From the NCBI RefSeq assembly GCF_901538355.1, contig NZ_LR593887.1, forward strand, positions 4,502,920 to 4,566,919: DNA of 64,000 nt, written 5' to 3'. The DNA is from Tuwongella immobilis (lineage in GTDB: Bacteria; Planctomycetota; Planctomycetia; Gemmatales; Gemmataceae). This document shows positions 31,909-43,990 of the stretch, piece by piece. The notes beneath the pieces were generated by a model that was given only the letters and a program-made list of their open reading frames with translations, was not told the origin of the DNA and ran no database searches. The number at the start of each line of letters is the position of its first letter. Positions within the stretch are counted from its first letter, which is position 1. The position numbers were made by a program, and so were the translations under genes.

Positions 31909-32256
31909 GCGATAATCACTCCTCAGACGGAAAAACGGTTGGATACCGATTCTGCGGGACCAGAGGACGTGGCAGCGTCTCTGGCGATTAGCAGTCGCAG
32001 GCATGAGAATCCTGGCAGGGTTCTCACGGAGTTTGGCGAGTCCTTGGATTGATCGCAATTCCACCGTATGGTAACGCTTCTCCCATGTCAAGCATTTTCA
32101 GACAATTCGGGAACTTTCTTGCTCAAGTTTGCAAAATCGCCTTCCCAACCCGCATTACTGCGAAACTGGTGGCGATTTTCGATGATGATCGGTCGCCTGC
32201 TGAAACAGCCGTGCAACCGCCAAAATCTCCGATTCCTTGCCAATCTTGCCGACGAT
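31909..32256. other. Gap between DUF1501 gene and amidase stop
   Basis: No intact gene. The part 32155-32256 encodes, on the minus strand, 33 residues that continue the amidase past its TAA (see that entry). The rest, AT-richer near 32080-32160, should hold the promoter for the DUF1501 operon; I see no convincing -35/-10 pair. Confidence 0.6.
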
Positions 32257-33570
32257 TTACATCGAAGTCGGCAGCCCCGATTGCGTCACACCAATCGGAA
32301 CGGCAATCGCGGGCAGCCCCACCAGATTCGCCCCTTGGATCACCGCCGGCCCCCGATACCCTGGATTCGGCTCATCGTCCTCCGCAATCGGCGACGCGAC
32401 ATCGACCATCGACGGAGCCACCAGCACATCAAACCGATCATCCATCGCTTGAACGAACCACTGTCGCCATTTCTGGCACAATCGCAACGCCCGCAGATAA
32501 TCGTCTCCCGGAATCAACGCCCCGGCATAACCACCGAGCCGATCCCCCGGATCTCGCAATTTCTGACATTCGCCGGACTTCAGAATCTTCTCAAAACTGC
32601 TAGCCGCCTCCACGCCAATCAGCAGCGACACCGCCGCATTAAACGGCTGACGTGGCCACGCGAAATCCGCTACCCGTTTGCCAAAAGATTCCAATACCGT
32701 CATCGCCGACGTAACCTGTTGCTTAATCTCGGGATGCACGCGATCAATGCTCCCAGCAATCAGCGCAAATTTCCAAGGTTGTTCCTTGGTTCGCGTGATC
32801 GGGGTATCACGCCAAGGCGTGGGCGAGGTCGTCGGGTCCGCAGCATCCGGCCCGGAAATCGCCTCCAAGACAATCGCACAATCATCAGCCGACCGCGCCA
32901 TCGGACCAATTTTGTCCAGCGTCCACGATAACGGCATCGCCCCCATCCGCGACACCCGCCCAGGGGTGGGTCGCAGCCCCGTCACGCCACAGAATGCACT
33001 CGGACAGAGAATCGAACCGCTCGTTTCCGAACCGATCGTAAACGCCGCCAACCCTGCTGCCGTGGCCGCACCAGATCCGCTGGAAGATCCACCGGCCCAA
33101 CGACTTCGGTTCCACGGATTCTTCGTCGGTCCCGTGAAACTCGCGTCGGCCTGGGAATATCCGAACCCACCGGCCAATTCGATCATCGCCAGTTTGCCCA
33201 ACAGAATCGCACCGGCTTGACGCAATTTTTGAATAATGGTCGCATCAAAATCGAATTGTTGTTTACGATATGGCTCCGCGCCCCAAGTCGTTGGTGCATC
33301 GCGGGTTGCGAGCAAATCCTTTGCCGCATAGGGAATCCCGTGCAGCAGTCCACGATATTTCCCGGCGGCAATCTCGGCCTCCGCCGCTTTCGCTTCGGCC
33401 AGTGCCGTGTCACGCATCAGCGTCACCACGGCATTCAGCGCACGCCCCTCCTGGTCCAACGCATCCAGATACGCTTGCGTCAACGCCACTGGCGAGAGTT
33501 TGCGGGTGCGAATTTGCTCGGCGAGGGTGCGGATCGTCGCCAGCCGATCGTCTCGGGTGATCGCTCGCAT
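32257..33570 (-). CDS. Amidase-signature hydrolase, truncated by in-frame TAA
   Basis: 437 residues from ATG 33570. The amidase-signature catalytic triad is visible: Lys84 in YAAKDLLA, Ser162 in AGGSSSGSGAA, and Ser186 in GSETSGSI (24 residues apart, as in the family). Such enzymes hydrolyse amides, including Glu-tRNA-Gln in GatA; the lack of gatB/gatC nearby argues for a general amidase. The frame stops at TAA 32257-32259 straight after GLPTSM, where family members usually read GLP-SMQIVG. Past the TAA the same frame continues IVGKIGKESEILAVARLFQQ... for 33 residues to a TAA at 32155-32157, a typical amidase tail. So one codon (probably CAA) appears mutated to a stop. It starts one base after the stop of the small gene upstream. 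Activity of the shortened protein is uncertain. Confidence 0.85.
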   Translation of the reverse strand: MRAITRDDRLATIRTLAEQIRTRKLSPVALTQAYLDALDQEGRALNAVVTLMRDTALAEAKAAEAEIAAGKYRGLLHGIPYAAKDLLATRDAPTTWGAEPYRKQQFDFDATIIQKLRQAGAILLGKLAMIELAGGFGYSQADASFTGPTKNPWNRSRWAGGSSSGSGAATAAGLAAFTIGSETSGSILCPSAFCGVTGLRPTPGRVSRMGAMPLSWTLDKIGPMARSADDCAIVLEAISGPDAADPTTSPTPWRDTPITRTKEQPWKFALIAGSIDRVHPEIKQQVTSAMTVLESFGKRVADFAWPRQPFNAAVSLLIGVEAASSFEKILKSGECQKLRDPGDRLGGYAGALIPGDDYLRALRLCQKWRQWFVQAMDDRFDVLVAPSMVDVASPIAEDDEPNPGYRGPAVIQGANLVGLPAIAVPIGVTQSGLPTSM

Positions 33571-33571
33571 C

Positions 33572-33973
33572 TTATTCCCTGGATTGAGGTTGCGCGGTGG
33601 GGGAATCGAGATTCGGCGGCACAATCGGGCCAGTTTGCCAATCGACTTCCGCCGCTCGCAACACGGCCGCCTGCCGTCGATAGGCCAGCACGCCTTGCAG
33701 CACAACTTGAATTTGCTCAGCCGTCAGCACATTCGCAAATCGTTCGCGGATCAGCACTTCGATCGCTTGGGGTGGTTTCAGAGCGGCCTTGGGTGGCTCG
33801 GCTGCGGGTGCCGATCCCGGCGCGGGCTGTGCGGGTGCCGATTCTTGGGCGGCGGCGGTGGATTCAGCGACCACTCCGCCCAACCCCATCGCCAACAACC
33901 AGCGTCCCCAGTCACGCCGATCGAGCGTCCCATCGTCCCAATCATCGAACGATTCTCGACTTTCCATCGACAT
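33572..33973 (-). CDS. Small exported-looking protein upstream of amidase
   Basis: 133 residues from ATG 33973 (GAGGG seven bases upstream). The N-terminal part, DRRDWGRWLLAMGLGG followed by an Ala-rich stretch, resembles a twin-arginine signal. A Pro/Ala linker leads to a predicted helical domain of about 60 residues (IEVLIRERFANVLTAEQIQVVLQGVLAYRRQA). The stop is separated from the amidase ATG by a single base, so the two are probably translated together and may be partners. No family was recognised. Confidence 0.72.
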   Translation of the reverse strand: MSMESRESFDDWDDGTLDRRDWGRWLLAMGLGGVVAESTAAAQESAPAQPAPGSAPAAEPPKAALKPPQAIEVLIRERFANVLTAEQIQVVLQGVLAYRRQAAVLRAAEVDWQTGPIVPPNLDSPTAQPQSRE

Positions 33974-42703: not shown

Positions 42704-43990
42704 ATGGTCTGGCTACTCATCGGCTACATGTTTCTCTTCATTGACAGACCGTTTGAAGTCTGGCCGATTCTCGGCGACATGTACCTCGAACGTGTCTACA
42801 TGCTGTTCACCATGGCCATGTGGTGCATCGCTCCCGGCAAACGCTTGCTGCCCAACGTGCAACATCTGGGCGTCATCGCCTTCGCCGGCGCGGTCCTCAT
42901 CACCTGGGGAATGTCCCCCTGGATGGAAGCCGGTCAGGTCGGCGTCGAAAACTGGTTCAAGGTGTTGGTCTTCTATGTGCTGCTTGTGACCAGCATCAAT
43001 ACGGAGAAGGACTTACGGCGAATTCTCGGCGGGTTTCTCGTCGTCATGGCGATCTATTTGTTGCACTCGCTGAAGGAATTTCTCGGCGGGCGACACGTCT
43101 ACCGCATGAGCATTGCCCGGATGGTCGGCGTCGATACGTCGATGGGCGACCCAAACTCGTTCGGTTCAACGATTATCTATTCTTTACCGATCGTGACGGT
43201 CTTCTGGTCGGTGACGACCTCCAAACTGTTGCGACTGGGGCTGTTGGGATACGTCGGCCTGTGCATGCTCTGCATTCTGCTGACCGGCTCGCGCGGGTCG
43301 CTGCTGGGCCTCATCATGATCGGCGGGATTCTCATGCTTCGCAGTCGGCGTATTGTGCTGTACGGAATCCTTGCGGTGCTGTTCAGCCCGGTCATCTTCA
43401 TGGCATTGCCTGAGTCGCTGCAAAATCGCTTTCATACGATCATCGATCCATCGGTCGGCCCGGCCAACGCCATCGAATCCGGGCAGGGTCGAATCGACGG
43501 GTTCTTCACCGGCATGGAATTACTCGCGGAATCGCCATTGGTCGGGATCGGCCCCGGTGCCTGGCGACCTCGAACGCGATCGATCATCGAATCGCACAAT
43601 CTTTATGGCCAAGTCGCCGGCGAAATGGGGATGCTCGGCATCGTGAGCTTCTTTGGCATGGTCTTGCTCGTGTACCACAACATTCGCACAATGAACAAAC
43701 TTCGTAAGCGATACCCGCCGCAATCGCCGGACGAAGAATTTCTGTATCGCACCGCGCGGGCGGTCGGCCTGATGTTCTTCATGATGTTATCATTGGGCAT
43801 GTTTGGCCACAACCTGTTTCGCTACAATTGGTTATGGTTCGGCGGCATTCTCATCATCGCCCATCATTGTGTGCTGGTGCGGCTGAAACAGCGCAGCATG
43901 AATGCCGCCCCGATGCGGCTGCCTCGAGTGATGCCGGTCGGTTTCCCGCGACCGATCGGGCCAGGCTCGGGACCGATGCGAGCAGGGTGA
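42704..43990 (+). CDS. O-antigen ligase/polymerase-like membrane protein
   Basis: 428 residues with about ten membrane helices. The start ATG follows GGAGG about ten bases upstream. The central LTGSRGSLLGLIMIGGI and the large periplasmic loop with GQGRIDGFFTGMELLAESPLVGIGPGAWRP and a nearby ESHNLYGQVAGEMG fit the O-antigen ligase (Wzy_C) family, including the conserved loop Arg and His. It would transfer or polymerise glycan chains at the outer face of the cytoplasmic membrane. No polysaccharide gene cluster is adjacent; galE lies 24 kb away. Confidence 0.86.
   Translation: MVWLLIGYMFLFIDRPFEVWPILGDMYLERVYMLFTMAMWCIAPGKRLLPNVQHLGVIAFAGAVLITWGMSPWMEAGQVGVENWFKVLVFYVLLVTSINTEKDLRRILGGFLVVMAIYLLHSLKEFLGGRHVYRMSIARMVGVDTSMGDPNSFGSTIIYSLPIVTVFWSVTTSKLLRLGLLGYVGLCMLCILLTGSRGSLLGLIMIGGILMLRSRRIVLYGILAVLFSPVIFMALPESLQNRFHTIIDPSVGPANAIESGQGRIDGFFTGMELLAESPLVGIGPGAWRPRTRSIIESHNLYGQVAGEMGMLGIVSFFGMVLLVYHNIRTMNKLRKRYPPQSPDEEFLYRTARAVGLMFFMMLSLGMFGHNLFRYNWLWFGGILIIAHHCVLVRLKQRSMNAAPMRLPRVMPVGFPRPIGPGSGPMRAG

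What the first reader, a model, noticed from the sequence alone, without database searches (positions are those of the whole stretch)
32155..33570. In-frame TAA cuts the conserved C-terminal tail from an otherwise intact amidase
Read directly: the minus-strand amidase ends GLPTSM-TAA at 32257-32259, yet the same frame goes on with IVGKIGKESEILAVARLFQQ and further residues to a second TAA at 32155-32157. Family members read GLP-SMQIVG at this point, so a CAA (Gln) to TAA change explains it. The catalytic Lys-Ser-Ser triad is untouched. Either the gene is a recent pseudogene, the protein works without 33 residues, the stop is read through, or the assembly has an error.
Basis: partly seen in the sequence, partly recalled or inferred. 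Interest (0 to 1): 0.55.

Follow-up and report, generated by a model that had tools for sequence, protein, structure and literature searches.

The report
Recently truncated amidase gene
A single early stop codon cuts the last 34 residues, half a sheet strand and a helix that every complete relative examined keeps, from an otherwise well-kept bacterial amidase gene; this is most likely a very young broken gene and not a new kind of feature.

Summary
On the minus strand the amidase frame (ATG 33570) meets TAA at 32257-32259 after 437 codons, then runs 33 more codons to TAA 32155-32157. Of 91 relatives, the 88 whose frame reaches this point continue for 31-47 residues; 43 carry Gln at the stop column, none a stop. 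The 50 solved structures listed all align past it. In a fold of the read-through protein the stop falls inside the last strand (434-441) and removes the last helix (446-459).

The lost tail fits the body (z -0.76), the body has no other stop, and 4 of 84 family-conserved sites are changed: the stop looks young. No UAA-suppressor tRNA was found.

New here: the upstream gene (33572-33973) is a diverged copy of a small, possibly AtzG/GatC-like partner that precedes this amidase in other phyla; its C-terminal motif is lost here. The amidase evolved unusually fast in this lineage (21-27% of tree length, against 6-15% for five control genes).

Best reading: a nascent pseudogene. A tolerated truncation or an assembly error is not excluded. 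Low interest.

The parts
32260..33570 (-). truncated amidase ORF, 437 codons, start ATG 33570
   Evidence: Pfam PF01425 E 1.5e-89
32257..32259 (-). in-frame premature TAA at codon 438
32155..32256 (-). 33 still homologous tail codons behind the stop, and the old TAA stop (32155-32157)
32248..32271 (-). codons of the last predicted beta-strand (residues 434-441), which the stop cuts
32194..32235 (-). codons of the last predicted helix (residues 446-459), lost
33319..33321 (-). catalytic Lys84
   Evidence: invariant in A1 and A2; residue checked
33085..33087 (-). catalytic cis-Ser162
   Evidence: invariant in A1 and A2; residue checked; 24 residues before S186, as in malonamidase S131/S155 (positions taken from mutant names)
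33013..33015 (-). catalytic nucleophile Ser186
   Evidence: invariant in A1 and A2; residue checked
33572..33973 (-). small partner gene (133 aa, RR near the N-terminus, Ala/Pro-rich linker, possibly GatC/AtzG-like core), its stop 1 nt before the amidase ATG; C-terminal N-x-DEP-x-F-x-F motif of relatives lost

Best explanation
A recent point mutation put a UAA stop at codon 438 of an amidase-signature gene that sits 1 nt behind a small gene for a putative AtzG/GatC-like partner. Translation should end there (inferred), giving a protein that lacks half of the last strand and the whole C-terminal helix. The likely result is a misfolded or inactive amidase, that is, a nascent pseudogene of an accessory gene that was already evolving fast in this lineage. 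Shown: the stop, the conserved tail in relatives, the intact remainder, the fast branch. Inferred: loss of function and the order of events.
For: 88 of 91 relatives continue past the column for 31-47 residues and none has a stop there. The 50 structures listed by VIA-align all align to model residue 457 or beyond (first and last aligned residue only). The stop lies in strand 434-441 and removes helix 446-459. The tail score fits the body (z -0.76 among 89 rows). In a neutral simulation about 90% or more of runs gain a stop in the body at 0.05-0.08 substitutions per site, so any free drift has been short. The branch of this genome is 21-27% of the amidase tree length, the longest end branch in the 9- and 11-genome trees, against 6-15% and ranks 3-7 for CimA, GalE, GatA and ArgJ and 15% for the AAA gene; it departs at 24 of 155 columns that the other eight share, the most of the nine. 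The other amidases of the genome are at most 38% identical, over a part, so no near copy explains it.
Against: Only 4 of 84 family-conserved sites are changed (rank 22 of 89), so the body was under working constraint until lately and may still be. Against its 25 nearest rows alone, the body score is the lowest and the tail score third lowest, so some tail erosion is not excluded. AlphaFold2 is as confident for the truncated chain (mean pLDDT 95.1) as for the read-through one (95.4), although the method is a poor judge of stability (recalled). The fast branch could reflect transfer or a paralogue: in the 100-row tree the gene groups with L016 and four Eremiobacterota rows, apart from the other ten Gemmataceae rows. 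Six of 67 relatives also depart from the P-x3-F pattern of the partner, among them L120 and L172 which have amidases with full tails, so the partner's change alone proves no decay.
Confidence: 0.58

Rival explanations
1. The truncated protein still works: the shortened amidase folds without the last helix, perhaps held by the partner, and the tail is simply dispensable here.
For: Body without other stops over 437 codons, catalytic triad intact, 80 of 84 family-conserved sites kept; AlphaFold2 keeps the fold for residues 1-437.
Against: None of the 88 relatives that reach the point lacks the tail and the 50 listed structures have it; the tail is not clearly more eroded than the body, as it would be had it long been unused.
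Confidence: 0.22
2. A sequencing or assembly error, or a mutation private to the sequenced culture, makes the stop; the organism's gene is intact.
For: The tail fits the body; no second assembly of this species was found to check.
Against: Single-contig assembly of 6.69 Mb; the site is not a homopolymer and substitution errors are rarer than indels in finished genomes (recalled).
Confidence: 0.16
3. The UAA is read through or recoded, giving some full-length amidase.
For: An undamaged tail is what read-through would leave.
Against: No tRNA with anticodon TTA among the 61 matches; in the two that ARAGORN did not resolve, TTA occurs only outside the anticodon loop or the inserted stretch. Only 150 of 186 candidates of the first look were scored. 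UAA followed by A is not a known leaky context (recalled). The partner gene, the EamA gene and the GalE gene of the window end in TAA.
Confidence: 0.04

Closest known systems
AtzE (1-carboxybiuret hydrolase) with AtzG, PDB 6c62/6c6g
   Same: Fold (VIA-align Z 50.4, rmsd 2.0 over 441 residues), amidase signature, small gene directly upstream; one partner homologue (L103) matches Pfam AtzG-like at 6.7e-5, 23.6 of 24 bits.
   Different: 29% identical in the structure alignment and far under the AtzE family cut-off (251.7 against 461 bits); relatives of the partner have a Tat-like N-terminus; this copy is truncated.
GatA of the GatCAB amidotransferase
   Same: Same fold (2df4, Z 51.2) and signature.
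   Different: The genome has its own GatA (TIGR00132 612.7 bits over a cut-off of 481.1; 65-79% identical to GatA of 11 relatives); the window gene is 36% identical to it over residues 14-328 and scores 244.5 bits for TIGR00132.
Pseudogenes by late nonsense mutation
   Same: One stop in an otherwise open frame, relatives intact.
   Different: Nothing in kind; it removes a structural element and not a loose tail.

Membership tests
Amidase signature family (PF01425) | profile match over the cut-off | tested here: met
   301.5 bits truncated, 317.6 read through, cut-off 27
Amidase signature family (PF01425) | Lys-cisSer-Ser triad | tested here: met
   K84, S162, S186 present and invariant in the alignments
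Amidase signature family (PF01425) | complete C-terminal strand and helix of the fold | tested here: not met
   removed by the stop
AtzE (NF006631 / TIGR02715) | score over the curated cut-off | tested here: not met
   251.7 of 461 and 247.8 of 425.75 bits; read through 269.1 and 261.5
AtzG-like partner (PF13318) | profile match over the cut-off | tested here: inconclusive
   window protein: no match; 2 of 31 aligned partner proteins match at E<=1, best 6.4e-5; L103 23.6 of 24 bits
Pseudogene | open frame broken where relatives are open | tested here: met
Pseudogene | loss of function or loss of purifying selection | not testable with these tools
   no close sister genome for dN/dS: no other genome of the same genus among the 94 other family genomes

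The most novel reading that the evidence does not exclude
The pair has been remodelled together: the small partner lost its C-terminal DEP-x-F-x-F motif and the amidase lost its C-terminal strand and helix, and the two still form a working, smaller enzyme whose C-terminal element is replaced or no longer needed. It would be the first tail-less amidase-signature enzyme among those examined here.
Probability: 0.07. Interest if true: 0.5.

Novelty: new member of a known kind. Interest (0 to 1): 0.2.

Why it matters
As a broken gene it is ordinary: one more young nonsense mutation. Two by-products have some use: a natural test of whether the amidase-signature fold tolerates losing its last strand and helix, and a little-annotated two-gene pair (small Tat-like, perhaps AtzG/GatC-like protein plus amidase) found in several phyla, most of whose small members get no clear Pfam match.

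Tried and rejected
Recoding by a suppressor tRNA: 61 Rfam tRNA matches in the genome (150 of 186 candidates scored), 54 loci that cover them scanned with ARAGORN, no TTA anticodon. A second copy in the same genome: the other matches are 34-36% or 29-38% identical. Synteny: neighbours outside the pair are not conserved beside the amidase in the 10 stretches (8.5-20 kb) examined; hits were one DUF1501 fragment and a weak small-gene hit in L097 and distant kinases in L095, L099 and L100. PF13318 in the own genome: no match, but its 14 controls were silent too. NCBIfam for the window's small protein: only lipoprotein LppK, E 6.7e-4, 19.7 of 125 bits, over the Ala/Pro linker, taken as composition. 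PDB search with the partner alignment: best E 0.059, nothing credible. AlphaFold2 on the truncated chain did not discriminate. Literature: no paper holding both 'amidase signature' and 'C-terminal truncation'; the one paper with 'amidase signature' and 'planctomycetes' was seen in the listing only. Dropped before counting: control gene 42704-43990 (only 4 of 11 genomes matched); G061 from the control trees (GalE split over contigs); CimA in G029 and G033 (28-31% homologues only); the AAA tree uses 5 of 11 relatives, the other six matching at 45-46%, and one used row (G004) has two in-frame TGA. A genome-wide rate of such stops was not measured.

Full report
Observation. The minus-strand frame from ATG 33570 reads 437 codons to TAA 32259-32257 and then, in the same frame, 33 codons to TAA 32157-32155. 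The window lies in a single-contig genome of 6.69 Mb.

Relatives. The family search covered 95 genomes, the own one included. Of the 12 closest relatives, 11 (L007-L017, 47-54% identical) run through the stop column; Gln stands there in 10 (5 CAA, 5 CAG) and Thr in L016; L018 ends with its contig. A second, more distant group of 17 (L019-L035) has Thr in all 17. With the 80 best loci from the GTDB scan the set is 91, of which 88 have 31-47 residues after the column: Gln 43, Thr 16, Ser 9, Ala 7, Cys 3, and His, Glu, Met, Arg, Val 2 each; no stop. The three others (L129, L145, L174) are broken or end early. L125 and L107 are at zero distance from L008 and L011, so two rows are probably counted twice.

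What is lost. The read-through protein folds with mean pLDDT 95.4; strand 434-441 and helix 446-459 close the fold. The stop after residue 437 cuts that strand and removes the helix. VIA-align to solved structures puts GatA 2df4 (Z 51.2) and AtzE 6c62 (Z 50.4) near the top; the 50 rows listed all align to model residue 457 or beyond. AlphaFold2 gives the truncated chain the same confidence (95.1); I do not take this as evidence of stability.

Age of the stop. Scored column by column against the relatives, the 31 tail columns fall where the body predicts (residual z -0.76 among 89 rows, tail rank 22 and body rank 27 from the lowest). Among its 25 nearest rows, however, its body score is the lowest and its tail score third lowest, so mild erosion of both is possible. 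In a simple neutral simulation without indels, about 90% or more of runs gain a stop in the body at 0.05-0.08 substitutions per site, and a tail drop of 0.57 (residual plus 1.64 standard deviations) corresponds to about 0.1. Of 84 columns conserved in at least 90% of relatives this protein departs at 4, rank 22 of 89. So the gene was probably in use until recently.

Rate. In trees of the same 9 genomes (this one included) the amidase body gives this genome 23.5% of the tree length, the longest end branch, against 8.4% (CimA), 14.4% (GalE), 8.6% (GatA) and 8.7% (ArgJ); with 11 genomes 20.7% against 11.1, 6.0 and 7.5% for GalE, GatA and ArgJ. For 6 genomes with the AAA gene it is 26.5% against 15.0%. 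NCBIfam confirms the names citramalate synthase, GalE, GatA and ArgJ over their cut-offs; the AAA gene has no match at 1e-20 and its name is my reading. In the 100-row tree this gene has an end branch of 0.77 (the next, L135, 0.76; median 0.21) and groups with L016 and four Eremiobacterota rows (support 94), apart from the other ten Gemmataceae rows, so transfer or hidden paralogy may add to the branch.

Partner. The gene directly upstream (33572-33973) ends 1 nt before the amidase ATG. A profile from 13 relatives' upstream small proteins finds it (E 2.8e-11 in a search space of one) and finds a partner in 67 of 89 relatives with at least 300 nt upstream at E<1e-3, 35 of them at 1e-8 or better; the 13 model rows are included and the weakest hits may be chance. 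In the close Gemmataceae 5 of 10 testable rows have it; L008, L009, L011, L012 and L015 do not, though their amidases keep the tail. The core alone scores 22.8 bits against at most 9.0 for the 992 of 1000 shuffles that were scored. Most relatives' proteins have an RR near the N-terminus and a C-terminal N-x-DEP-x-F-x-F motif; by a loose pattern P-x3-F is present in 59 of 67, six depart and two are not covered there; in the window protein no F follows the P. Kinship to AtzG is only suggested: L103 scores 23.6 of 24 bits for PF13318, 2 of 31 members match at E<=1. In Pseudomonas strain ADP AtzG is required for soluble AtzE (PMC6219798, passages).

Read-through. 61 tRNA matches; no TTA anticodon by ARAGORN in the 54 loci that cover them; in the two without a resolved anticodon, TTA occurs only in the D-arm region or an anticodon stem.

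Verdict. A real, young nonsense mutation in an accessory amidase of a known family, most likely a nascent pseudogene (0.58), with a tolerated truncation (0.22), a sequence error (0.16) and read-through (0.04) behind it.

Noticed in passing
window 33572-33973 (minus); partner genes listed: Small Tat-like protein with an Ala/Pro linker and a possibly GatC/AtzG-like core directly upstream of this amidase in Acidobacteriota, Eisenbacteria, Eremiobacterota, Planctomycetota and others; most members get no clear Pfam match.
   Followed up: partly
L143, L147, L157, L159, L160, L162, L166-L168, L175, L177-L179: In Bacteroidota and some Acidobacteriota relatives a weakly similar segment (E 1e-7 to 1e-3), mostly with P-x3-F, lies just before the matched amidase region and may be fused to it; the frames were not checked.
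   Followed up: no
G000:C1:6682899-6683765 (L076): Compact array of at least six tRNA genes, most of them low-scoring (ARAGORN lists nine in the stretch), near the end of the contig, with anticodons also found elsewhere in the genome.
   Followed up: no
G000:C1:4333939-4334077 (L088): tRNA-like match with about 75 bases in place of the anticodon loop; ARAGORN does not call it.
   Followed up: partly
L195 (G004:C41:11913-13364): Relative of the window's AAA gene with two in-frame TGA codons within the match.
   Followed up: no
G042:C158:63441-64736: Another Gemmataceae-family genome has a distant amidase (36% identical) with one in-frame TGA; among the rows that one search lists, cut short by its limit, I saw no third one with an internal stop.
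   Followed up: no
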